From Vicinamibacterales bacterium (GTDB lineage: Bacteria > Acidobacteriota > Vicinamibacteria > Vicinamibacterales > JAKQTR01), in the NCBI GenBank assembly GCA_025456345.1, contig JALOKU010000024.1, positions 1 to 40,003 of the forward strand: a stretch of 40,003 nt of DNA. Direction: 5' to 3'. Shown here one piece after another: positions 5,395 through 40,003 of this stretch. The notes below the pieces were generated by a model that was given only the letters and a program-made list of their open reading frames with translations, was not told the DNA's origin and did no database searches. Positions within the stretch are counted from its first letter, which is position 1, and each line of letters begins with the position of its first letter. The position numbers and the translations under genes are program-made.

Positions 5395-7380
5395 ATGATA
5401 CCGAACCGCAGCCTCGGACGTCTGTTGGCCACGAGCACCGCCATCCTCTTCACCGCGGCCCTGCTCACGGCGGCGCGGCCGTCTGCCCAGCAGGCCGTGC
5501 AGCCGGCGGCGCAGGCGAACCCTCAGCAAGCCATCACGGCCCCGGTGCCGAGCCACAGCGCGGGCCCCGTTGTACCCAGGATTGTTGCCGGCATCACGAA
5601 GACGCCGCAGGGCCGCCTGGTGTTTGAGATTCCCGGCCAGGCCCCGGCGCTGGAAGCGTATCGGCCGCCGATCTGGACGATGGCGCAGGTCCGCGGCAAC
5701 CCGCGCGGCACGGAGAACGGCATCGCCCTCGACTTCGCCAGACCCGACTTCGCGGGCACGCTCATCTTCGGCCTGATCCCGTACCGCGACACGAAGTACC
5801 CGCAGCCGGTTTACCGCACCAGCGTGCCCATCGCCGCCGGCAAGGCTGAAATCAACATCAAGACCAGCATCACCGATCGTTACGACATGGTGGGCTGGCA
5901 GAAGTCCGGGACGGGCGTGGTGGGCTACCGCGTTGTCTCGCAGACCGGCGGCATGATCTACGACGGCCGCGTCCGCTTCAAGGGATTCGGCCCCTTCGAG
6001 ATCGACGTGACGATGGTCGAGGGGCCGTTTGTGGGGAACGTGGAGCCGCGGCAGGCGGTGATCTCGTTCCAGCTCGACCGGCCGTCACCGTGCGCGGTCG
6101 TCGTCGCCGAGCGGACCGTCCCGTGCAAGGTCGGCGAGACGCGGCAGGAGATCGTCATCGACCGGCTCCAGCCGGCCAAGGACTACGCCTACACGGTGCG
6201 GTACGGCGAGAACGAGGAAACCTACGGCTTCCGCACCGCGCCGCTGCCGGGCACGCGCAAGCCGTTCGTGTTCGCGTACGCGAGCGATTCGCGCGGCGGC
6301 CAGGGCGGGGGCGAGCGCAACTTCAACGGGCCCAACGCGTACATCATCCGCCGGCTGATGGCCGTCACCGCGTCGCGCGGAGCCGCCTTCATGCAGTTCA
6401 CGGGCGACCTGGTGAGCGGGTATGTCATCAGCCCCGATCAGTTGATCTACGAGCTGGCCAACTGGAAGCGCGCCGTCGAGCCGCAGGCGCACTGGATGCC
6501 GGTGTACACGGGCCTTGGCAACCACGAAGCGATCCTCCGGGAGTTCTCGGGCGCCGGCGCGCGGTCGGTGCGCGTGGCCCGCTTCCCCTACGACACCGAG
6601 TCGTCCGAAGCGGTCTTCGCGCGCGAGCTCGTGAATCCGGAGAACGGCCCGGCCAGCGAGGACGGCGCGGCGTACGACCCCGACCCGCTGGCGACGGACT
6701 TCCCCCCGTACCGCCGCAACGTGTTCTGGTACCAGTACGACAACGCGGCCATGGTGGTGCTGAACTCGGACTACTGGTACACGCCTTCCGTGGCGACGGT
6801 GCCGGAGTCGGGCGGCAACCTGCACGGCTACCTGATGGATCAGCAGATCGCCTGGCTCGAGAAGACGCTCGGCGAGCTCGAGCGCAACAAGACGATCGAT
6901 CACGTGTTCCTGACGGTGCACACGCCGCTCTTCCCCAACGGCGGGCACGTGGGCGACGCGATGTGGTACAGCGGGAACAACACGCCGAGAGCCACGGTTG
7001 CGGGGAAGCCGGTGGCAAAGGGCATCATCGAGCGGCGCGACGACCTGCTCACGCTCATCCAGCAGCACCCGAAGGTGCTGGCGGTGTTCACCGGCGACGA
7101 GCACAACTACAACAAGACGCGCCTCGACGCCACGGTGCCCATCTACCCGCCCAACTGGGACAAGCCGAAGGTGGAACTGAAGCGGCCGTTCTGGCAGATC
7201 AACAACGGCGCCGCCGGCGCGCCGTACTACGCGCAGGACGACACGCCCTGGTCGGCCGCGGTGAGCGGGTTCTCCACCCAGCACGCCATCTGCCTCCTCA
7301 GCGTCGAGGGCCTGAAGGTGCGGCTCGAAACGGTGAACCCCGAGACGCTCGAGGTGCTGGACCGCGCGGTGCTGCGGTAG
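5395..7380 (+). CDS. Secreted calcineurin-like metallophosphoesterase (purple-acid-phosphatase-like)
   Basis: The 661-residue protein begins with a signal peptide (hydrophobic core ATSTAILFTAALLTAA, cleavage near residue 30). A beta-rich N-terminal half with a fibronectin-III-like region (about 200-290) precedes the catalytic domain. The metallophosphoesterase metal ligands are visible: Asp298 in ASDSRGG, Asp338 in FTGDLVSG, Asn376/His377 in GLGNHEAI, His509 in TVHTPLF, and His570 in TGDEHNY. This order is that of purple acid phosphatases and related phosphohydrolases, acting in the periplasm or outside on phosphate esters. The spacing between first and second motifs contains a Gly-rich insertion (RGGQGGGER). 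It appears to be a single gene. Substrate is unknown. Confidence 0.88.
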   Translation: MIPNRSLGRLLATSTAILFTAALLTAARPSAQQAVQPAAQANPQQAITAPVPSHSAGPVVPRIVAGITKTPQGRLVFEIPGQAPALEAYRPPIWTMAQVRGNPRGTENGIALDFARPDFAGTLIFGLIPYRDTKYPQPVYRTSVPIAAGKAEINIKTSITDRYDMVGWQKSGTGVVGYRVVSQTGGMIYDGRVRFKGFGPFEIDVTMVEGPFVGNVEPRQAVISFQLDRPSPCAVVVAERTVPCKVGETRQEIVIDRLQPAKDYAYTVRYGENEETYGFRTAPLPGTRKPFVFAYASDSRGGQGGGERNFNGPNAYIIRRLMAVTASRGAAFMQFTGDLVSGYVISPDQLIYELANWKRAVEPQAHWMPVYTGLGNHEAILREFSGAGARSVRVARFPYDTESSEAVFARELVNPENGPASEDGAAYDPDPLATDFPPYRRNVFWYQYDNAAMVVLNSDYWYTPSVATVPESGGNLHGYLMDQQIAWLEKTLGELERNKTIDHVFLTVHTPLFPNGGHVGDAMWYSGNNTPRATVAGKPVAKGIIERRDDLLTLIQQHPKVLAVFTGDEHNYNKTRLDATVPIYPPNWDKPKVELKRPFWQINNGAAGAPYYAQDDTPWSAAVSGFSTQHAICLLSVEGLKVRLETVNPETLEVLDRAVLR

Positions 7381-18205: not shown

Positions 18206-19530
18206 ATGCTGAATCGCCGCCAGTTCGTCCAGAGCGCCACGATCGCCGGTGTGGCGTCCGCATTGCCGTCTGTCGCGTCCGGCGTCGTCGAGCCGCCGCC
18301 GCAAACCTCGCCGGTTCCGCAGCCCCAGTCCTTCAGCGCGCTGCCGATGCTGAAAGGGCAGGCCCGCCCGATCACCAATGACGAGCGTCTGGCGCGGATC
18401 GAACGGGCCCGGGCACTGATGATCAAAGAGGGTCTTGGCGCCATCGTCCTCACCGGCGGCACGTCGCTTGTCTACTACACGAACCTGCGCTGGGGCCACA
18501 GCGAGCGCATGTTTGCCGTTGTCCTTCCGGCGAAGGGCAACCCCGCCATCATCTGCCCGGCGTTCGAGGCCGATCGGGCGGGGGAGCAGATCAAGACGAG
18601 CCCGCTGGCCACAGGCGCGGAATTGCTCACCTGGGAGGAGACCGCGAGCCCGTTCGACTTGACCGCCCGCGCGTTGAAGGCCCGCGGCGTGGCGACAGGC
18701 CGCGTCGGCATCGAGGAGACCGTGCGGTTCGTCTTCGCGGACAGCATCGCGCGGGCGGCGCCGGCGATCCGGTTCGTGAGCGCGACGCCGGTGACGGCCG
18801 GCTGCCGCATGTTCAAGGACGCCCACGAGCTGGAGTTGATGCGCCTGGCGTCGAAGGTGACGCTCAACGCGTATGCGGCGGCGTACCCCGGGCTGCGCGA
18901 CGGCATGACGCCGGCCGAGTACGGCGCCCTGACGTCGGCTGCGCATCAGCGTCAAGGCTTTTCGGGCGGCGGCGGCGCCCAGATCGGCCCGAACAGTTCG
19001 TATCCGCACGGGTCCGTCGTGCCGCAGGTGGTTCGCGAGGGCGCGATGGTGCTCGTCGACGGCGGCTGTTCGGTGGAAGGCTACAGCTCGGACATCAGCC
19101 GCTCGTTCGTGTTCGGCAAGCCGGGCGACAAGATGCGCAAGGTATTCGATCTCGTGCGGCGCATGCAGCTCGCGGCGATCCACGCGGCGAAGCCGGGCGT
19201 GACGCTCGACACGCTGGACCGGGCCGCGCGAAAGCTGGCCGAGGCCGAAGGCTACGGCCCAGGTTTCACGTTCTTCACGCACCGCCTCGGCCACGGCCTC
19301 GGCATGGACGGGCACGAGTGGCCGTACCTGGTCGAAAACAACATGTTCGGATGGACGAAGACCGTCGTCCTCAGGCCCGGGATGACCTTCACGAACGAGC
19401 CGGGCATCTACATACCAGGCGAGTTCGGCATCCGGCTCGAAGACGACATGGTGATCACGGAACACGGCGCGGAACTGTTCACGCCGCAGAGCCCGTCCAT
19501 CGACGACCCGTTCCCCGGATTGCCGGTGGC

Positions 19531-19534
<4 letters not shown>
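18206..19534 (+). CDS. Tat-exported M24 metallopeptidase (Xaa-Pro aminopeptidase-like)
   Basis: Start at ATG 18206 follows GAGGAG with six-base spacing and gives a twin-arginine signal (LNRRQFVQSATIAGVASALP), so the folded enzyme is exported to the periplasm. The 442-residue protein has a creatinase-like N-terminal domain and a pita-bread M24 domain with the five metal ligands: Asp285 (VDGGCS), Asp296 (SSDISRSF), His363 (HRLGHGLGM), Glu398 (FTNEPGIY) and Glu412 (IRLEDDMVI). M24B enzymes remove an N-terminal residue preceding proline. Export suggests a role in using external peptides, together with the tricorn protease and M19 dipeptidase nearby. Its TAG stop overlaps the TAA stop of the convergent kinase gene within TTAG (19531-19534). 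Confidence 0.9.
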
Positions 19535-21741
<2,207 letters not shown>

Positions 21742-21835
21742 GTTCGTCGACCCTAATATCGGGGCCCGGGGGGCGGGTGTCAATAGGTTGGACGACCAGC
21801 CCGCCTCGCCGGTTTCTCCCCGGGCCGCCGAAATG

Positions 21836-21911
21836 AGGGGTCGGGACTGATTACGGCGCATACAATTTTGGATTACAGTTCTGTTCCGTACGCTAATCAG
21901 TCCCGACCCCT
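21836..21911. repeat. 76-nt hairpin element, copy 1 (REP/MITE-like)
   Basis: Perfect 18-nt arms (21836-21853 and 21894-21911; AGGGGTCGGGACTGATTA and its complement) enclose 40 nt containing ATTACAGTTCTGT. A sister element with equally long interior sits at 25243-25320. This copy lies in the divergent region between the kinase and tricorn genes and ends 4 nt before the tricorn ribosome binding site, so it would be part of the 5' leader. A TACAAT hexamer (21861-21866) lies in its loop and could serve as -10. No transposase is encoded nearby. Confidence 0.85.
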
Positions 21912-21924
21912 AGTCGGAGGACAT

Positions 21925-24900
21925 ATGTTGCCTGGACGGTTGAGAGGATTCGCGCTCGTCGTGGTCGTGGCCCTGTGCGCGCCGCTGGCGGCACAGAAAT
22001 CCCAACTCGGCTTCTATCGCCAGCCCGCGATATGGAACGATACGCTCGTCTTCGTGGCCGAGGGCGACCTCTGGCGCGTCGGCGTCACCGGCGGCGCCGC
22101 GCAACGCCTGACGACGCACCCGGAAGAGGAAAGCCGGCCGGCCATCTCGCCCGACGGCAAGGTGGTGGCCTACGCCGCCACCTACGAGGGCCCGGGCGAG
22201 GTCTACACGATCCCCCTCGAGGGCGGGGCGCCAGCCAGAGAGACCTGGGACGCCACCCGCCCGGCGTGGCTCTCGTGGACGCCCAAGGGCGAGGTGCTCT
22301 ACGCCACCCGCCGCCACTCCACGCTGCCGAACGCGCAACTGGTCCGCCTCGATCCCTCCACTCACGCACGAACGATTGTCGCCCTGGCCCAGGCCTCGGA
22401 CGGCTCGTTCGACGCGGCGGGCGCCACGCTGTTCTTCACGCGCCTCGCGTTCCAGGGCAGCCACACCCGGCGCTACAAGGGCGGCACGGCCCAGAACCTG
22501 TGGCGCTTCGACGGCGCCGGCTCCGAGGCCGTCGCGCTGACCGCCGACTACCCGGGCACCAGCAAGACGCCGATGTTGTGGAAGGGCCGCGTCTACTTCG
22601 CATCCGACCGCGACGGCGTGATGAACCTGTGGTCCATGAACGAGCGCGGCGGCGATCTGAAGCAGCACACGAGGCACCGCGACTTCGAGGTGCAGTCGCC
22701 GTCGCTCTCGAACGGCCGGATCGCCTATCAGCAGGGCGCCGACATCCGGGTCTTCGACATTGCCTCGGGCTCGGACAGGGCCGTCCCGATCACCCTCATG
22801 TCGGACTTCGACCAGTTGCGCGAACGCTGGGTGAAGAACGCGGTCGACTGGATTTCGTCGGCGCACCTCTCGCCGTCGGGCGACCGCGTGGCCATCACGG
22901 CGCGCGGCCAGGTGTTCGTCGCGCCGGCGCTCCAGGGCCGGCTCGTCGAGGCCACGCGCAACAAACTGGCCCGCCACCGCAACGCGCGGTTCATGCCCGA
23001 CGGCAAGTCGATCCTGACGCTCTCCGACGAGAGCGACGAGGTGGAGTTCTGGCAGGTCCCCGCCAACGGCATCGGCGCGGCCACGCAGCTCAGCCGCGAC
23101 GGGTCGGTCCTGCGCTGGGACGGGTTGCCGTCGCCCGACGGCCATCTCATCGCCCACCACGACAAGAACCAGCAACTCTGGATCTTCGACGTGGCGAAGA
23201 AGACGCAGACGAAGGTGGCAGATTCGGCGGACGGCGAATTCGACGACCTGAGCTGGTCCCCCGACTCGAAATGGCTGGCGTACGCGGCGCCAGGGCCCAA
23301 CCAACTGACGCGGATCTACCTCTACGAGATCGCGACGGCGCGCATCGTGCCGGCGACGTCGGACCGGTTCGACAGCGGCAGCCCGGCGTGGAGCCCGGAT
23401 GGCAAGTGGCTCTACTTCCTCTCGGATCGCAACTTCGAGTCGCTCGTCGGCAGCCCCTGGGGCTCTCGGCAGCCCGAGCCGTTCTGGGATCGGCAGACGA
23501 AGATCTACCACGTGGCCCTGAAGCGCGGCGAGCGCTCTCCCTTCCAGCAGGACGATGAACTGCAGCCCGTGAAGACGGGAGAGAAGCCGGCCGCGGACAA
23601 ACCCGGGGAGAAGCCGGCGCCAGAGAAGGCCGCGCCAGAGAAGGCCCCAACAGACAAGCCGGCCACGGAGAAGCCCGCCATTCCCGCGGTCGTCGTGGAC
23701 GTCGAAGGTCTCGACACGCGGCTCCTCGAAGTGCCTGTGCCCGCCGGCAACTACGGCAGCCTCTCGATGGATGCGAAGCGCCTCTACTTCGTCTCGCGGC
23801 CGGCCGGGCGCGACGGGAAGGTGGCGCTGAAGACGCTGGCCCTCGAGAACAAGAGGGCCGACCCGGACACCTTCATCGAGGAGCTGCAAAGCTACGAGCT
23901 TTCGCAGGACGGCAAGAAGATCCTCCTCCGCAAAGGCCGCGACGTCTACGTGGTGGACGCCGGCGCCAAGGCGCCCGCCGATCTCTCGAAGTCGGCCGTG
24001 CCGCTCAAAGACTGGATCTTCAGCCTCGACCCGCGCCTCGAGTGGCGCCAGATGTTCACCGAGGCCTGGCGACTCGAGCGCGACTACTTCTACGACCGCG
24101 GCATGCACGGCGTGGACTGGCTGGCCATGCGCAAGAAGTACCAGCCGCTCGTCGAGCGTGTCACCGACCGCGCCGAACTCAGCGACGTCCTGGCCCAGAT
24201 GGTGGCGGAGCTCTCCGCGCTGCACATCTTCGTCCGCGGCGGAGACCTGCGTGACGCGGGCGACGATGCGTGGCCGGCGTCGCTGGGGGCGCAGGCGGTG
24301 CGGGACGAGAAGGCCGGCGGGTTCAGAATCACGCATGTGATCACCACCGATCCCGATCGCCCGGATCGCCGCGTGCCGCTCGCGCAGCCCGGCGTCGATG
24401 TCGGTGAGGGCGACCTCATCGAAAGCGTGAACGGCGTGGCGGCGCTCTCCGCCCCCGACCTGCCGGCGCTGCTGCGCGGGCAGGCAGGCAGGCAGGTTCT
24501 GCTGCGCGTCAAGCCGAAGGCCGGCGGGCCGGCGCGAGACGTGATCGTCCAGCCGGTCACCGCGCAGGTCGAGGACGGGCTCCGCTACGACGAGTGGGAG
24601 TACACGCGCAGGCTGGCGGTCGAGAAGGCGGGCCAGAACCAGGTCGGCTACGTTCACCTGCGCGCGATGGGCGCGGGCAACATGGCCGAGTGGATGCGCG
24701 AGTTCTACCCGGTCTTCAACCGGCCCGGCCTCATCGTCGACGTGCGCCACAACAACGGCGGCAACATCGACAGCTGGATCCTGGGCCGGCTGCTCAGGCG
24801 GGCCTGGTTCTACTGGCAGCCGCGCGTGGGGCACCCGACGTGGAACATGCAGTTCGCGTTCCGCGGGCACATGGTGGTGCTGGTGGACCAGAACACCGCG

Positions 24901-25239
24901 TCGGACGGCGAGGCGTTCGCGGAAGGGTTCCGCCGCCTGGGCCTCGGCAAGGTGCTTGGCACGCGAACGTGGGGCGGCGAGGTCTGGCTCAGCCAGAGCA
25001 ATACCCTCGTCGACCGCGGAATCGCCACGGCCGCCGAGACCGGCGTCTACGGACCGGAAGGACAGTGGCTCATCGAGGGCCACGGCGTCGACCCAGACAT
25101 CGTCGTCGACAACCTGCCGCACGAGACCTTCGGCGGCAAGGACGCGCAACTCGACGCCGCCGTCCGGCACCTTCAGGAACTGATCAAGTCGAAGCCGATC
25201 CCGGTGCCGCCCCCGCCGCCCTACCCCATCAAGCGCTGA
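21925..25239 (+). CDS. Secreted tricorn-type protease (S41B) with beta-propeller and PDZ domain
   Basis: The ATG at 21925 follows GGAGG (21916-21920) and a signal peptide (FALVVVVALCAPLAAQ). The 1104-residue protein has, in order, WD40/PD40-type propeller blades (ISPDGKVVAY, WSPDSKWLAY, WSPDGKWLYF), a Lys/Pro/Glu-rich linker near residues 550-585 (KPAADKPGEKPAPEK), a second propeller, a helical region, a PDZ domain (about 790-875, LIESVNGVAAL) and an S41 protease domain. The catalytic pair is His767 (ELSALHIFVRGGD) and Ser993 (NTASDGEAFAEGF), with DVRHNNGGNIDSW before it. Tricorn proteases degrade oligopeptides that reach the active site through a propeller. Export implies extracytoplasmic peptide breakdown. 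The gene is bracketed by two copies of the hairpin element. Confidence 0.92.
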   Translation: MLPGRLRGFALVVVVALCAPLAAQKSQLGFYRQPAIWNDTLVFVAEGDLWRVGVTGGAAQRLTTHPEEESRPAISPDGKVVAYAATYEGPGEVYTIPLEGGAPARETWDATRPAWLSWTPKGEVLYATRRHSTLPNAQLVRLDPSTHARTIVALAQASDGSFDAAGATLFFTRLAFQGSHTRRYKGGTAQNLWRFDGAGSEAVALTADYPGTSKTPMLWKGRVYFASDRDGVMNLWSMNERGGDLKQHTRHRDFEVQSPSLSNGRIAYQQGADIRVFDIASGSDRAVPITLMSDFDQLRERWVKNAVDWISSAHLSPSGDRVAITARGQVFVAPALQGRLVEATRNKLARHRNARFMPDGKSILTLSDESDEVEFWQVPANGIGAATQLSRDGSVLRWDGLPSPDGHLIAHHDKNQQLWIFDVAKKTQTKVADSADGEFDDLSWSPDSKWLAYAAPGPNQLTRIYLYEIATARIVPATSDRFDSGSPAWSPDGKWLYFLSDRNFESLVGSPWGSRQPEPFWDRQTKIYHVALKRGERSPFQQDDELQPVKTGEKPAADKPGEKPAPEKAAPEKAPTDKPATEKPAIPAVVVDVEGLDTRLLEVPVPAGNYGSLSMDAKRLYFVSRPAGRDGKVALKTLALENKRADPDTFIEELQSYELSQDGKKILLRKGRDVYVVDAGAKAPADLSKSAVPLKDWIFSLDPRLEWRQMFTEAWRLERDYFYDRGMHGVDWLAMRKKYQPLVERVTDRAELSDVLAQMVAELSALHIFVRGGDLRDAGDDAWPASLGAQAVRDEKAGGFRITHVITTDPDRPDRRVPLAQPGVDVGEGDLIESVNGVAALSAPDLPALLRGQAGRQVLLRVKPKAGGPARDVIVQPVTAQVEDGLRYDEWEYTRRLAVEKAGQNQVGYVHLRAMGAGNMAEWMREFYPVFNRPGLIVDVRHNNGGNIDSWILGRLLRRAWFYWQPRVGHPTWNMQFAFRGHMVVLVDQNTASDGEAFAEGFRRLGLGKVLGTRTWGGEVWLSQSNTLVDRGIATAAETGVYGPEGQWLIEGHGVDPDIVVDNLPHETFGGKDAQLDAAVRHLQELIKSKPIPVPPPPPYPIKR
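24479..24496 (+). repeat. Short tetranucleotide run (GGCA) within the tricorn gene
   Basis: 4.5 copies of GGCA lie in tandem inside the PDZ-coding region and are read as RGQAGRQ. A one-unit slip would frameshift the gene before the protease domain, but the copy number is low. Confidence 0.6.
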
Positions 25240-25242
25240 CAT

Positions 25243-25320
25243 GAGGGGTCGGGACTAATTAGCGATCGCGACAAAATCGTATTACAGATTTGTCTGCGCG
25301 CTAATTAGTCCCGACCCCTC
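25243..25320. repeat. 78-nt hairpin element, copy 2 (REP/MITE-like), possible bidirectional terminator
   Basis: Perfect 22-nt arms (25243-25264 and 25299-25320; GAGGGGTCGGGACTAATTAG... and its complement) enclose a segment with an inner stem ACAAA(A)TC / GATTTGT and ATTACAG. The 18 outer arm bases differ from copy 1 at one position per arm and the interior between them is also 40 nt. It starts 3 nt after the tricorn stop and is followed by TTTT, so it can act as a terminator for that gene and, read the other way, for the convergent barrel gene. Confidence 0.88.
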
Positions 25321-25323
25321 GTT

Positions 25324-26661
25324 TTACCCGCCGACGAAGTTGGAGAGTCTCGTGTTGACGACGCTGCTGAAGATGGAGCCGAAGGTGTAGCTGATGCCGA
25401 CGCGGAACGAGTGCCGGAACGACGTGGCCAGCTGCCGCTGGCGGGCCAGCACCTCTTCGTCGGTGGCTTCGCCCTTCGGCAGGTAGATCTGGTCGTGAAT
25501 GCCGGCCGTCCTGAGGTTGAAGTTGAGGGCGAATCCCTTGAAGAGCCTGACGTCGCCCTCCACCTGAATCGACCGCCGATACAAAGCGGTGTCGTGCAGG
25601 TATTGCGAGAAATCGACATCGGCGCTGATCGATCCCCACGTCTGGCGGATGTCGAACGACGTGCGGAACATGTGGCTGCCGACGGTTTCCTCCAGCTTCT
25701 CGAACACCGTCTCCTCGATGTAGTCATAGCTGGTGACGCCGACGATGTACTGGAGCGTCAATTGCCGCCTGGTCGATTCCGAGTAGGGGAAGAAATTCCA
25801 CTCGATCGCGGCCGAGGCGTTGAGCACGCGGTCCTTGTTCTCATAGGTCGAGCCCGCGACGTACGTCTTGGCGCCCGCGGACCAGTGGCTGGTCAGGCTC
25901 TTCACGGCCTGCGCGGTCGCGTCGTAACTGCGGCGGACGCTGGTATACGTGCTGCCGTCGCTGTAGGTGTAGACGTTGTCGCGGTAGTCCTGGTAGGTCG
26001 CGAACCCGAACTTCCACGCGTCGGTCACGCGGCTTGCGGAGACAGAGCCGTTGTATTGCCGATATTCGCTTGCGCTCTCGAACTCACCGCTCGTGTTGGC
26101 CCTGGCGCGGAAGACCCAGTAGTTCCAGGGGTCCTTCCCCGCGCGCGACGCGGAGGCGGCTCTCTGGCCGGCGTCGGGCGGCTTGTGCGTCAGGTTCAAC
26201 TGCCCGCCGAGGCCGGTGCGCAGCGCGTACCGCACGAGGCCGAGCTTGAGCGTGCGCACGAAGGCCCGCCGCGCGAGGTCTTCGGTGTCGGTCGGCAGCG
26301 TGACGAACAGCACCTCGTCGTCGAGGCCGGCGAACGCGCCCAGGCCCACGAACTTCATCGTGAATTCGCGGCCGCCCGCGCCCGTGCCGAGCGAGGTGAC
26401 CAGCACGTGGACGTCGGCAGCCTCGCGCACGTTGACGAAGTCCGCGTACGCAATCTCGGTCTTGACGTAGTCGAAGAAGCAGGGCGTGTGGTCCTTGCAG
26501 TCCAGGAACACCCTGATCGCACCTTCGTCGAGCCGCTCGCGGGCCGCGGAGAACGTCGAGACGGCGGCCGGGCTGCCGGTCGCGGCAGCGGGATCCTGGG
26601 CGCGCGCGGGGAGTGGCACGGCGACGAGCGCGAACGCGAGAGCTAGGGCGAATCGACGCAT
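25324..26661 (-). CDS. Uncharacterised exported protein with predicted C-terminal outer-membrane barrel
   Basis: The 445-residue start at 26661 follows AAGGGG with six-base spacing. A signal peptide (ALALAFALVAVPLPARAQ) is followed by an N-terminal domain of about 130 residues (VFLDCKDHTPCFFDYVKTEI, ADVHVLVTSLGTGAGGREF, FAGLDDEVLFVTLPTDTED). From about residue 175 the sequence alternates polar and aromatic/hydrophobic residues in strands with Tyr, Thr and Ser (EYRQYNGSVSASRVTDAWKF and similar), the pattern of an outer-membrane beta-barrel. I do not recognise a named family; the N-terminal pattern with CFFDY and DVHVLVTS looks conserved and resembles uncharacterised proteins of Acidobacteria and Gemmatimonadetes. 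The last residue group is NFVGG, not the usual terminal Phe of a barrel. Confidence 0.65.
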   Translation of the reverse strand: MRRFALALAFALVAVPLPARAQDPAAATGSPAAVSTFSAARERLDEGAIRVFLDCKDHTPCFFDYVKTEIAYADFVNVREAADVHVLVTSLGTGAGGREFTMKFVGLGAFAGLDDEVLFVTLPTDTEDLARRAFVRTLKLGLVRYALRTGLGGQLNLTHKPPDAGQRAASASRAGKDPWNYWVFRARANTSGEFESASEYRQYNGSVSASRVTDAWKFGFATYQDYRDNVYTYSDGSTYTSVRRSYDATAQAVKSLTSHWSAGAKTYVAGSTYENKDRVLNASAAIEWNFFPYSESTRRQLTLQYIVGVTSYDYIEETVFEKLEETVGSHMFRTSFDIRQTWGSISADVDFSQYLHDTALYRRSIQVEGDVRLFKGFALNFNLRTAGIHDQIYLPKGEATDEEVLARQRQLATSFRHSFRVGISYTFGSIFSSVVNTRLSNFVGG

Positions 26662-26685
26662 GATGAGCCCCTTGCCAACCAGACA

Positions 26686-26703
26686 GCCTCGCGTGGGCGA
26701 GGC
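26686..26703. promoter_or_regulatory. Inverted repeat upstream of the barrel gene
   Basis: GCCTCGC-GTGG-GCGAGGC has perfect 7-bp arms, 25 nt before the barrel ATG. It may be a leader hairpin or operator. Confidence 0.35.
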
Positions 26704-26823
26704 CGTGCCGGAGTGTCATCACTGTGAGCGCAAGATCCGCGGACCGGAGAGCCGTATGGCGGCGAAGATCGCGCGGCCGAAAACCGAGTCCGCATCATAC
26801 CCCACCGTGGCGGGATTGCGAGG

Positions 26824-26829
26824 TATGCT
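26824..26829 (+). promoter_or_regulatory. -10 element TATGCT of the VWFA-like gene, leaderless layout
   Basis: TATGCT is followed by six bases (CTGCAC) and the GTG start at 26836; no Shine-Dalgarno is suitably placed. The same hexamer occurs upstream of the VOC gene at 28664-28669. Confidence 0.35.
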
Positions 26830-26835
26830 CTGCAC

Positions 26836-28647
26836 GTGAAAGTCAGCGGCTCGTCGCTCTTCTTCGCGGCCGGCTCGGCCGCGGTGCTCGTGGCGGCCAG
26901 CGTGCTCGGTACCGCCGCCCTGCCAGCGGCGCCTCAGACGCCGCCGACGCCTCAGCAGGCCGGGCCGGCGGAACCGCAGGCCGTGACGGTGCTGTTCCGT
27001 GCGCTGCTCGCCGACGGGCGCCCGTTCGCCGACGTCAGGCTCGAGGACGTCGAGTTGAAGGTGGATGGCCGGGTGCGGACGCCGGGCTCGCTTCAGTTCG
27101 TGCAGCCGGGCAGCGGGGAAACCGCCGCCGCGCGGGCGGAGGTGCCTCCGCCGTTTGCCACGAACCTCCGAGGGGCCGCGCTGCGGGACACGATCCTCGT
27201 CGTCGAGGACGAGTCGATCGGCGCGAGCATGGCGCAGGCCGTCCAGGCGGCGGCCCGGCAGTTCATCGGCCGTCTTGCGCCGCAGGATCGCGTCGGCCTG
27301 GTGACCATTCCGCGCGGCGGCGTGAATGTCGGCCTGACCACCGACCGCGCGAAGATCCACTCGGCCATCTCGGAAGTGAGCGGGCGGGCGGCGCGCAACG
27401 AAAGCGAGGCGGATGCCGCGTGCCGGACACGGCAGGTGCTCGATGCACTGATGAACGTGTTCCGGGGCGCGGCCGGAAACCCGCCGGCCACGATCATCGT
27501 CTTCGGAGGCGGACTCACGCCGCCGATGTTCGACGATGTGACGAGGATGTCGAACCCGGTGGGCCTCTGCGACATCCGCGGGAAGGACTACCAGGAAGTG
27601 GAACTTGTGATGCTTGGCGCGCCGGTGAGCGTCAGTGTCATTCACGTGCCGGATCCCACGGGCTCGGGCGCCGCGGCATCCACGAGCCAGGTGCAGGGCC
27701 TCGAGCACCTGGCCGGCATCACGGGCAACAGAATCATTCGCCTGGTCGGGTCGAGCGAAGCCGCGATGGCGAGGCTTGCGGCGTCCACCTCCGCCTACTA
27801 TCGCCTCACGTTCGAGCCAGCAGACTCGGAGCGCAACGGGCTCACGCACCCCGTGAGCCTGAAGGTCAACCGGCCGGACGTGGTGGTGACGACTCGTCCC
27901 AGCGTCCTTATTCCGTCTGCCCGCGGCGCGAAATCCGCTGCGAAGAGCGCGACGCCGCGCGACATGCTCCGCGTGGGCGATGTCTACCGCGACCTTCCGC
28001 TGCGCGCGGCCGCGTACATTTCGCGCGAGGGCTCGACCGACAACGCCAGGGTCGTCGTCATGCTGGAGCCGATGGAAGCGACGGCATCGCTGAAGGCTGC
28101 TGCGGTGGCGCTGTACGACGCGAAGGGCAAGCTGGTCGTGCAGGCCACCGCGGACCAGGACAGCCTCGCACGCAGCCCGCCGATGATCGCGATTGTGGCC
28201 AAGATGGGGACGTACCGGCTGCGGGTCGCCGCCACCGACGCGGCAGGCCGGGCCGGGACCGTCGACAGCGCCCTCGACGTGCAGCTCACCGGCGAAGGCG
28301 CGCTGACGCTGAGTTCGCTCGTGCTCGGCGTGGCCGTGGAGGGGCGGTTCGCCGGCCGGATGCAGTTCCATGACGAGCCGACAGCGGTTGCGTACCTGGA
28401 GATCTACGGCGTGCCGAAGGGCGAACTCTCGGCCGAGCTCCAGCTGGCGGGCACCGAAGGCGGCCCGCCCGCCGTGCGCGGCGCCATGCGGATCACCGGC
28501 GAGCCCTCCGACAGACAGCACGTCGCCCTTGGAGGCATCCCCATCGGTTCACTCCCTCCCGGCGACCTCGTCGTCCGGGCCGTCGTCAGCCTCGATGGCG
28601 TCCCCGTCGGAGCTGTCACCCGCACGCTTCGAAAAGCGGAACGATAG
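26836..28647 (+). CDS. Secreted VWFA-like protein (acidobacterial type)
   Basis: The 603-residue protein begins with GTG and an N-terminal hydrophobic signal (SSLFFAAGSAAVLVAASVLG). Residues about 100-320 have the order of a von Willebrand A domain: ILVVEDESIGAS at the MIDAS position (the usual DxSxS is altered to DESIGAS), RVGLVTIPRG, and NPPATIIVFGGGLTP. The N-terminal stretch (VTVLFRALLADGRPFADVRL, VELKVDGR) matches the entry seen in the VWFA-related proteins common in Acidobacteria. The C-terminal 250 residues form beta-rich modules that are not recognised. VWFA domains mediate adhesion or assembly; the incomplete MIDAS suggests weak metal-dependent binding. Confidence 0.7.
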   Translation: MKVSGSSLFFAAGSAAVLVAASVLGTAALPAAPQTPPTPQQAGPAEPQAVTVLFRALLADGRPFADVRLEDVELKVDGRVRTPGSLQFVQPGSGETAAARAEVPPPFATNLRGAALRDTILVVEDESIGASMAQAVQAAARQFIGRLAPQDRVGLVTIPRGGVNVGLTTDRAKIHSAISEVSGRAARNESEADAACRTRQVLDALMNVFRGAAGNPPATIIVFGGGLTPPMFDDVTRMSNPVGLCDIRGKDYQEVELVMLGAPVSVSVIHVPDPTGSGAAASTSQVQGLEHLAGITGNRIIRLVGSSEAAMARLAASTSAYYRLTFEPADSERNGLTHPVSLKVNRPDVVVTTRPSVLIPSARGAKSAAKSATPRDMLRVGDVYRDLPLRAAAYISREGSTDNARVVVMLEPMEATASLKAAAVALYDAKGKLVVQATADQDSLARSPPMIAIVAKMGTYRLRVAATDAAGRAGTVDSALDVQLTGEGALTLSSLVLGVAVEGRFAGRMQFHDEPTAVAYLEIYGVPKGELSAELQLAGTEGGPPAVRGAMRITGEPSDRQHVALGGIPIGSLPPGDLVVRAVVSLDGVPVGAVTRTLRKAER

Positions 28648-38430: not shown

Positions 38431-39504
38431 ATGAAACCCTCTCGCCGCGAGTTCCTTGCTCTGGCCGGGGCGGCTGCGGCGTCAACGGCGGTGCGGCTCG
38501 GGGCGTCGCCGTTGCCAGCGGGCACTGCAGGCGAGGTCCGCCGCCTGACATCACCCGGCTTCCTGGACCTGCAGGTCAACGGGTTCGCGGGCGTCGACTT
38601 CAACGACCCGGCGACGACGGCGGACGACCTGCACCGCGCGCTGGGCGTGCTGCGATCGCACGGCGTGACGCGCTTCCTGCCGACGCTCATCACGAGCTCC
38701 GCCGAGCGGTTCGACCAGTGTGCGCGGCTCGTGCTCGGCGTGAAGTCCGACGCCATCGCCGGCATCCACATGGAAGGGCCCTACATCTCGCCGGAGGACG
38801 GCCCGCGCGGCGCACATCCGCGCGAGTTCACCGCGTCGGCCTCGATTGACGATTTCAAGCGGCGGCAGGATTCGGCCGGCGGACACATCCGCCTGGTGAC
38901 GCTCGCGCCCGAGGTGCCAGGAGCATTGCCGCTCATCGAGCACCTGCGGGCGCATGACATCCGCGTGGGCATCGGCCACACGGCGGCGTCGGCCGACATC
39001 ATCCGCGACGCCATCAAGGCTGGCGCCACGCTGTCGACGCATCTGGGCAACGGAGCGGCGCAGATGATTCCGCGGCACCCGAACTTCATCTGGGAGCAGT
39101 TGGCCGCCGACGAGATGATGGCCTCGATCATCGTGGACGGGCATCACCTGCCGCCCGCCACGGTGAAGACGATGATCCGGGCGAAGGGCGTGCGGCGGAC
39201 GATTCTGGTGACCGACGCGATTGCCGCCGCGGGCCAGGCGCCGGGCGAGTATCAGCTCGGAAGCGTCAAGGTGCGGCTGGACGAGACGGGGCGGGTAGCC
39301 ATCCCGGGTTCGCCAGGTCTCGCCGGATCGGCGCTGGCCATGGACCGGGCCGTTGCGAACACCGTCCGCTTCGCCGGCGTGTCGCTCGACGACGCGCTGG
39401 CCATGGCCTCCACGAACCCGGCCGCCTACCTGGGCGTGAAGACCGCCGGCACGCTCCACCTCGAGTGGGACCCCGACGCCTTCACGCTGCGCGTCGCGAA
39501 GTAG
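38431..39504 (+). CDS. nagA: Tat-exported NagA-like amidohydrolase (N-acetylglucosamine-6-phosphate deacetylase family)
   Basis: Start at ATG 38431 follows GGAG (38421-38424) and lies 2 nt after the dipeptidase stop. The 357-residue protein opens with a twin-arginine signal (SRREFLALAGAAAAS), so it is predicted to be exported. The amidohydrolase barrel has GFLDLQVNGFAGVDFND, HMEGPYISPEDG (metal Glu), GIGHTAAS and STHLGNGAAQM (metal His), DGHHLP and LVTDAIAAAGQ (catalytic Asp). Classical NagA works in the cytoplasm on the phosphorylated sugar; an exported form would not meet that substrate, and the THLFNAM motif is replaced by THLGNGA, so the real substrate may be a non-phosphorylated N-acyl amino sugar or amino acid. 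Its TAG stop is also part of a hairpin arm at 39502. Confidence 0.85.
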   Translation: MKPSRREFLALAGAAAASTAVRLGASPLPAGTAGEVRRLTSPGFLDLQVNGFAGVDFNDPATTADDLHRALGVLRSHGVTRFLPTLITSSAERFDQCARLVLGVKSDAIAGIHMEGPYISPEDGPRGAHPREFTASASIDDFKRRQDSAGGHIRLVTLAPEVPGALPLIEHLRAHDIRVGIGHTAASADIIRDAIKAGATLSTHLGNGAAQMIPRHPNFIWEQLAADEMMASIIVDGHHLPPATVKTMIRAKGVRRTILVTDAIAAAGQAPGEYQLGSVKVRLDETGRVAIPGSPGLAGSALAMDRAVANTVRFAGVSLDDALAMASTNPAAYLGVKTAGTLHLEWDPDAFTLRVAK

Positions 39505-40003
39505 GGGTCGTGGGATCCCGACCCCTAACGCGCGGGAGCATCGCAATGGCGGCGGCACCAAGCAGCGCGACGACGATGAGCCAGGTGAACCCCGCGCGGT
39601 AGCTGCCGGTGACATCGCGAAGGTATCCGACAAGCATCGGCGACACGGCCTCCGCAACGCCGTCGGCCGTGACGATGATGCCCATCACGCCGCCATCAGC
39701 GGGATGATGAGGTACTCGCCGCCCAGGCCGATGCCGAAGATCGCGGCGAACAGCACCATCGCGCGGCCTGATGACGCGAAGAAGAGCAACGGCACAGCCG
39801 CCGCCACGAGCAGGTAGATGATCAGCATCACGTGCTTCTTCGGCATGCGGTCCGCCAGCCAGCCCATCAGCAGCCGGCCGGCGATACTGAATCCCAGCAC
39901 GAGCGAGATGATTCTCGCGGCATCGCCCTGGCTGTAGCCCGCGTCGAGGCTCATGAACAGCTTCAGGTGCTGGTTCGCTCCGCCCACCGCCGCGATCGAA
40001 CAC
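39482..40003 (-). pseudogene. MFS transporter, frameshifted and cut by the window edge
   Basis: The minus-strand frame from the right edge reads as a transporter (DAARIISLVLGFSIAGRLLM, ADRMPKKHVMLIIYLLV, FAAIFGIGLGGEYLIIPLM) but meets TGA at 39685-39687 just after LMAA. The continuation lies in the next frame as GVMGIIVTADGVAEAVSPML and GYLRDVTGSYRAGFTWLIV, to a stop at 39482. In intact relatives about ten residues (an ELFG..LGR-type loop) separate these parts, so a deletion of roughly 28-29 nt with loss of frame is likely; a sequencing or assembly error cannot be excluded. The motif GG-EY-IIPL and GRVMG loop are those of oxalate/formate-like MFS proteins. The C-terminal tail RGRDPTTPTSRRAA is encoded by the hairpin at 39502-39527 and the end of the convergent nagA-like gene (23-nt overlap). 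Confidence 0.75.
39502..39527. repeat. Minimal hairpin element, copy 3, between convergent genes
   Basis: TAGGGGTCG (39502-39510) and CGACCCCTA (39519-39527) form perfect 9-bp arms around TGGGATCC; the interior GGGATCCC is itself palindromic. The arms share AGGGGTCG with the two long elements at 21836 and 25243, so this may be a shortened copy or solo end. The TAG stop codon of the nagA-like gene is the first three bases of the left arm. Confidence 0.6.

What the first reader, a model, noticed from the sequence alone, without database searches (positions are those of the whole stretch)
21836..25320. A gene bracketed by two copies of a 76-78 nt hairpin element
The tricorn protease gene is flanked by two elements with the same design: 18 outer arm bases (AGGGGTCGGGACT[G/A]ATTA and complement) and exactly 40 nt of interior, sharing ATTACAG[T/A]T and TGT. 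Copy 1 ends 4 nt before the ribosome binding site; copy 2 begins 3 nt after the stop. The 5' copy carries a TACAAT that could be the promoter -10, and the 3' copy ends with TTTT and looks like a terminator. Arm differences are compensated (G/C in copy 1, A/T in copy 2 at the same arm position), so the stem is being preserved. This is typical of REP/MITE-type elements moved by an external REP-associated (RAYT) transposase, here possibly co-opted as leader and terminator of one gene. The bracketing could also mark a mobilised gene cassette.
Basis: partly seen in the sequence, partly recalled or inferred. Interest (0 to 1): 0.78.

Follow-up and report, generated by a model that had tools for sequence, protein, structure and literature searches.

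The report
Transposase-linked hairpin repeats at gene ends
The two hairpins beside this gene are copies of a repeat found about 46 times in the genome, with the same ends around a transposase gene that is predicted to move them, and most copies lie right at the ends of genes, where some supply the stop codon.

Summary
In detail: two 76-nt elements (21836-21911, 25244-25319), each with 18-nt inverted arms and a 40-nt interior. They belong to a dispersed family. The arm occurs 68 times in the 5.07 Mb genome (reversed-pattern control 1), as 22 inverted doublets (75-76 bp, five; 116-182 bp, seventeen), one 32-bp mini copy and 23 solo halves. Two solo halves flank an intact RAYT-type Y1 transposase gene on contig C66. 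This is a RAYT/TIR system of the kind called TIRtron (Di Nocera 2013), with REPIN-like doublets but no GTAG tag and no target duplication (0 of 22). Of 43 outer edges facing a gene 3' end, 37 lie within -20..+12 nt of the stop, against 1 of 26 facing a start; in 11 the stop is the TAA inside the arm. Tricorn is not a mobilised cassette: congener G002 has it beside the same downstream gene without these elements, and with a copy of G002's own, different repeat family in the same slot. Promoter and terminator roles are unsupported. Against a strict pairing, four of seven genomes with the arm gave no transposase match at 1e-20. New member of a known kind.

The parts
21836..21911 (.). copy 1, short (76-bp) doublet, between divergent kinase and tricorn genes
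21836..21853 (+). copy 1 left arm AGGGGTCGGGACTGATTA
   Evidence: 1 mismatch to consensus
21894..21911 (-). copy 1 right arm (same 18-mer on the minus strand)
25244..25319 (.). copy 2, short (76-bp) doublet, between two convergent stops
25244..25261 (+). copy 2 left arm AGGGGTCGGGACTAATTA
   Evidence: exact
25302..25319 (-). copy 2 right arm
   Evidence: exact
21925..25239 (+). tricorn-type protease gene (1104 aa) bracketed by the two copies
   Evidence: Peptidase_S41, Tricorn_C1, PDZ_Tricorn, PD40; orthologue in G002 83%
21916..21920 (+). likely ribosome-binding site GGAGG, 4 nt after copy 1
   Evidence: sequence
25324..26661 (-). downstream convergent gene (445-aa ORF, no Pfam match); its stop lies 4 nt from copy 2
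19531..21742 (-). upstream divergent Ser/Thr kinase-TPR gene (start near 21742; the listed ORF runs to 21861 inside copy 1)

Best explanation
The two hairpins are copies of a dispersed inverted-repeat family whose ends also flank a RAYT-type (Y1, HUH) transposase gene in the same genome, and that transposase is predicted to spread them as single-stranded hairpins. SHOWN: each half-unit is a near-invariant arm AGGGGTCGGGACTAATTACG, a loose stretch, then a less conserved inner palindrome (consensus GATGACAAATTTGTCATC); halves occur alone, as inverted doublets, and at both ends of the transposase gene on C66. Doublets show no target duplication. Outer edges lie mostly at gene 3' ends, and the arm's TAA, or a TAG or TGA made at the junction, is often the gene's stop. 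INFERRED: the transposase binds folded half-units, excises or copies the element from single-stranded DNA and joins it elsewhere; insertions persist mainly at stop codons because they cost little there and the arm can end the reading frame. At the tricorn locus the two copies are likely separate insertions: copy 2 between convergent stops; copy 1 between divergent starts, where its RNA hairpin would lie just before the ribosome-binding site if transcription starts upstream of it.
For: 68 arm sites against 1 in the control; 22 doublets in few length classes plus 23 solo halves. Transposase gene C66:6030-6713 between half-units at 5770(+) and 6772(-); Pfam Y1_Tnp, PDB TnpAREP 4er8 at E 7e-4, HUH and tyrosine motifs present in all 13 proteins aligned. 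The genome's second Y1 gene has other repeats at its ends. Stop proximity: 37 of 43 against 1 of 26 edges; 29 of 32 elements within 12 nt of a stop against a simulated mean of 16.0, maximum 23 of 5000 runs. Gene ends rewritten: L028 gene ends RGRD* where three homologues end RRPA*, CRA* and CSG*. G002 lacks both window copies. The window copies are 79% alike and copy 2 is closer to C13:19835 (88%), so not one copy duplicated in place.
Against: No movement was observed. Of 7 genomes with the arm at up to 1 mismatch, 4 (G003, G004, G034, G067) gave no transposase match at E 1e-20, and 34 of 37 genomes with the transposase lack this arm. The C66 protein scores under NCBIfam's curated cut-off (72.8 against 80). 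The inner palindrome is only partly conserved: its four inner pairs form in 95, 80, 52 and 41% of 56 halves. Copy 1 does not follow the 3'-end rule: it is one of 8 elements in divergent gaps. Gene edges come from a simple codon-usage caller of my own.
Confidence: 0.85

Rival explanations
1. A locus-specific regulatory pair: the hairpins arose as leader and terminator of the tricorn gene and are kept for that, not as mobile DNA.
For: Strong RNA folds at both places; copy 2 sits between two convergent stops and is followed by CGTTTT.
Against: 44 further elements elsewhere; absent in G002; no plus-strand promoter match at copy 1; TTTT behind 1 of 69 edges. A later, secondary role in expression stays possible.
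Confidence: 0.05
2. The two copies mark a gene cassette: tricorn was mobilised as cargo between them.
For: The outer arms have the inverted orientation of a transposable unit; eight neighbouring element pairs enclose one called gene.
Against: Tricorn and the downstream gene align as one 4.5-kb block with G002, without these elements. Upstream synteny does differ.
Confidence: 0.03
3. A classical MITE moved by a DDE transposase.
For: Short non-coding elements with terminal inverted repeats.
Against: No target duplication (0 of 22 at 3-9 nt); 23 solo halves; the same ends flank a Y1 transposase gene. I did not search the genome for DDE transposases with these ends.
Confidence: 0.04

Closest known systems
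TIRtron / TIRYT (Di Nocera et al. 2013, PMC3733652: abstract, sections 14, 15, 16 and passages read)
   Same: RAYT-like gene flanked by long inverted repeats instead of GTAG REPs; the repeats form moderately abundant families of singles and dimers; Acidobacteria among the examples; TIR motif GGGGWSAS resembles GGGGTCGG.
   Different: GGGGTCGG differs from GGGGWSAS at one of 8 positions (G for A); the half-unit has a loose spacer and an inner palindrome; the arm holds an in-frame TAA used as a stop.
REPIN (Bertels and Rainey 2011, PMC3116915: abstract and part 1 of section 10 read)
   Same: Inverted pairs of a short repeat that fold into one hairpin, in few length classes (there 71 and 110 bp, here 75-76 and mainly 116-129 bp), with singlets, no coding sequence and a RAYT gene in the genome.
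   Different: No GTAG tag at the ends; about 46 elements rather than hundreds; excision was not tested here.
GTAG REPs at gene ends (Di Nocera 2013, section 15)
   Same: Elements close to gene 3' ends, between convergent or unidirectional genes, and element ends supplying TAG stops.
   Different: Here the usual supplied stop is a TAA 13-15 nt inside the arm.
TnpAREP subclass 2.1 (PMC6006769: sections 17, 20 and passages read)
   Same: Y1 HUH protein with an N-P/A tyrosine motif; this subclass is thought there to hold the TIRYTs.
   Different: No C-terminal helix-turn-helix Pfam domain detected; HWH where the table lists HVH, HYH or HFH.

Membership tests
TIRtron / TIRYT | Y1 HUH transposase gene flanked by terminal inverted repeats | tested here: met
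   C66:5770(+) and 6772(-) around the gene; HUH and Y conserved in 13 of 13 aligned
TIRtron / TIRYT | TIR also dispersed as single and dimeric copies | tested here: met
   22 doublets, 1 mini doublet, 21 further solo halves
TIRtron / TIRYT | GGGGWSAS motif (shared by some, not all, TIRs) | tested here: inconclusive
   GGGGTCGG fits 7 of 8 positions; G002's other family GGGGTCAG fits 8 of 8
REPIN | inverted doublets forming a hairpin, over-represented against chance | tested here: met
   22 doublets; both window copies z -7.55 and -12.34
REPIN | made of GTAG-type REPs | tested here: not met
   outer ends read AGGGG in 66 of 69 halves, GTAG in none
REPIN | excised as a unit in the cell | not testable with these tools
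   needs population sequencing
DDE-type MITE | target site duplication | tested here: not met
   0 of 22 at 3-9 nt
mobilised gene cassette (tricorn) | gene absent from the orthologous place in relatives | tested here: not met
   same downstream neighbour in G002
RAYT protein family | NCBIfam NF047646 curated cut-off | tested here: not met
   72.8 bits, cut-off 80; still E 2.5e-20

The most novel reading that the evidence does not exclude
RAYT elements of this type aim at, or are kept at, the last codons of genes and hand the gene a new stop (RGRD*); by settling on both sides of single genes they create invertible units: the bracketed fucose-isomerase-type gene on C66 was flipped against its own operon, and a kinase fragment was trapped between two ends at C241. 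They would be a source of gene-end replacement and single-gene inversion.
Probability: 0.12. Interest if true: 0.62.

Novelty: new member of a known kind. Interest (0 to 1): 0.38.

Why it matters
It decides between mobile repeat, regulatory pair and gene cassette, and ties a specific repeat family to its likely transposase. The comparison of congeners is the useful part: the same slot behind the tricorn stop holds repeats of two different families in two species, and insertions can replace the last codons and stop of a gene, so some gene ends in these genomes are made by such elements.

Tried and rejected
Rfam scan of 19000-28000: no match. Promoter and terminator scans: no plus-strand site at copy 1, nothing at copy 2; the terminator scan allows loops of 3-8 nt, so it cannot see a 40-nt loop. 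Target duplication: none. One window copy duplicated into the other: rejected, 79% alike. The C241 kinase-like fragment (recognised by eye) is not a copy of the window kinase (one 72-nt match at 74%, among the loci then held). The genome-contig scan with the transposase gave 11 relatives at 31-53% best-segment identity in Planctomycetes, Patescibacteria/Paceibacterota, an Acidobacteria gp6 MAG and others; it may leave out close records and did not name the host. Host taxonomy stays undetermined.

Papers: searches (open-access library only). In those listings and the parts read I saw no report of an arm-borne TAA replacing gene ends or of gene inversion by such elements; that is not proof of absence. 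PMC8266576: abstract and outline only.

Rows dropped: of the 66 sites, C241:109 (arm not extended); of the 68 sites, C192:1796 (3 mismatches); of the 47 elements, the window mini palindrome near 39503. The simulation used 32 of 46 elements (divergent gaps, gaps over 400 nt, the transposase unit's two ends and the C53 mini copy left out). One search used 56 halves (short class, mini copy and C241:14418 left out).

Full report
Observation. The window carries two 76-nt elements, 21836-21911 and 25244-25319, each with 18-nt inverted arms around a 40-nt interior. Single-strand folds are far more stable than shuffles (z -7.55 and -12.34). They bracket a tricorn-type protease gene, 21925-25239. Copy 1 lies between the divergent kinase and tricorn genes and ends 4 nt before GGAGG. 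Copy 2 lies between two convergent stops, 4 nt from each.

Family. The 11-nt core occurs 66 times in the 5.07 Mb, 253-contig assembly (control 5) and the 18-nt arm 68 times with up to 3 mismatches (control 1). I analysed 46 elements: 22 inverted doublets (75-76 bp, five, two of them here; 116-129 bp, sixteen; 182 bp, one), one 32-bp mini doublet and 23 solo halves, two of which are the ends of the transposase unit. The 56 halves aligned need no gaps: a near-invariant arm, a loose stretch, then an inner palindrome of consensus GATGACAAATTTGTCATC whose four inner pairs form in 95, 80, 52 and 41% of halves. Doublets have no target duplication (0 of 22 at 3-9 nt).

Transposase. Y1_Tnp (PF01797) matches two genes in this genome. 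The one on C66 (6030-6710 plus stop, 227 aa) lies between half-units at 5770(+) and 6772(-). It resembles E. coli TnpAREP by sequence (4er8, E 7e-4) and scores under NCBIfam's REP-associated tyrosine transposase cut-off (72.8 against 80). The HUH and tyrosine motifs are present in all 13 proteins aligned. The other gene, on C185, has different repeats at its ends. Among 100 related genomes, own included, the arm (up to 1 mismatch) occurs in 7, among them all 5 of the same family, and the transposase in 37 at E 1e-20. Only G000, G001 and G002 have both; G003, G004, G034 and G067 have the arm without a match at that cut-off, so presence does not track strictly. Of the 20 transposase loci inspected (63 matches were listed), 18 show an inverted repeat scoring 14 or more at the two gene sides, L132 is doubtful and L145 has none; 9 contain GGGGTC (no shuffled control). 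In congener G002 the orthologous transposase (64%) sits at the same locus; its left end carries the variant GGGACGAATTA and its right end is decayed. Of 9 arm sites in G002, 4 read GGGACGAATTA, 4 GGGTCTAATTA and 1 the form seen here. Such drift suits a cognate pair but does not prove one.

Placement at gene ends. With a simple codon-usage gene caller, 17 of 46 elements lie between convergent, 21 between tandem and 8 between divergent genes. Of 69 outer edges, 43 face a gene 3' end and 37 of these lie within -20..+12 nt of the stop; of the 26 facing a 5' end, 1 does. In 32 tandem or convergent gaps, 29 elements lie within 12 nt of a stop, against a mean of 16.0 and a maximum of 23 in 5000 simulations. 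In 21 of the 43 edges the stop uses element bases: 11 at the TAA of arm positions 13-15 (RGRD*), 5 as T|AG, 2 as TG|A, 2 at -19 and 1 at -52. An L028 gene ends AI-RGRD* where three homologues (69, 53 and 54% identical) end RRPA*, CRA* and CSG*. At C241 the gene ends in the arm's TAA both here and in G002, while G001 has no element there (frames read by eye). Di Nocera 2013 already reports REPs next to 3' ends and GTAG termini supplying TAG stops, so this is a variant of a known pattern. In G002's other family the bias is weaker: 14 of 34 edges facing a 3' end against 3 of 21 facing a 5' end; six more of the 34 lie 37-81 nt inside an ORF that runs on into an arm without a stop.

The tricorn locus in a congener. 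G002 has the gene at 83% identity, and tricorn plus the downstream gene align as one 4.5-kb block at 79%. Neither copy is present there. The slot behind the G002 tricorn stop holds a copy of GGGGTCAGATCC, a repeat with 63 arm sites in G002, 4 in this genome and 1 in G001; two of its arms lie on either side of G002's second Y1 match at C37. That slot copy has one clear arm and a decayed partner and folds modestly (z -3.05). So tricorn is not a cassette, and the same gene end was taken by two different families. Upstream synteny differs: the nearest long match upstream lies about 26 kb away on the same G002 contig, and the kinase has only weak or partial matches.

Bracketing. Ten element pairs lie within 4 kb of each other against 1.6 expected (maximum 9 in 5000; three of the ten come from one triple on C241), and eight neighbouring pairs enclose exactly one called gene. 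Local reinsertion or shared tolerance of some regions would explain it; I could not separate the two. Two loci hint at consequences. On C66 a fucose-isomerase-type gene bracketed by inverted ends runs opposite to its FGGY-kinase and class II aldolase partners, which run with it in G002 and G003; these homologues are only 39-62% identical, so vertical descent is unsure. On C241 a kinase-like fragment lies between two inverted halves where G002 has a plain doublet.

Function at this locus. Copy 1 would put a strong hairpin into the tricorn leader if transcription starts upstream; no plus-strand promoter match was found in 21700-21960. Copy 2 is followed by CGTTTT, but TTTT follows 1 of 69 edges and 9 of 69 have four or more T in 8 nt. 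A two-way terminator role for copy 2 is possible and untested.

Verdict. A RAYT/TIR (TIRtron-type) repeat family with REPIN-like doublets: a new member of a known kind, with a clear record of settling on, and sometimes replacing, gene ends.

Noticed in passing
window 39503-39526: A 24-bp palindrome AGGGGTCG-TGGGATCC-CGACCCCT whose first bases complete the TAG stop (39502-39504) of the plus-strand gene ending at 39504: a possible mini relative, not counted in the family.
   Followed up: partly
L051 552-1219 (C241:13751-14418): Kinase-like gene fragment between two inverted solo halves; at the matching junction G002 has a 119-bp doublet and G001 none.
   Followed up: partly
L227 568-4785 (C66:14567-18784): Fucose-isomerase-type gene bracketed by elements and opposite in direction to its FGGY-kinase and aldolase partners; G002 and G003 have all three co-directional.
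   Followed up: partly
C66 against G002:C4 (L226, L227, L222): The transposase locus has two extra multi-gene blocks in this genome (about 6 kb and 4.3 kb) relative to G002, with elements in or beside both.
   Followed up: no
L031 (C185): A second RAYT-type gene flanked by unrelated repeats with GGTGACAGGTTC; copy number not measured.
   Followed up: no
G002, L168-L200: G002's GGGGTCAGATCC family, 63 arm sites, often with the arm motif repeated 20 bp apart within one side of a doublet, a different architecture.
   Followed up: partly
L012 (C53:4320-4351): A 32-bp mini doublet with almost no interior, between convergent genes.
   Followed up: no
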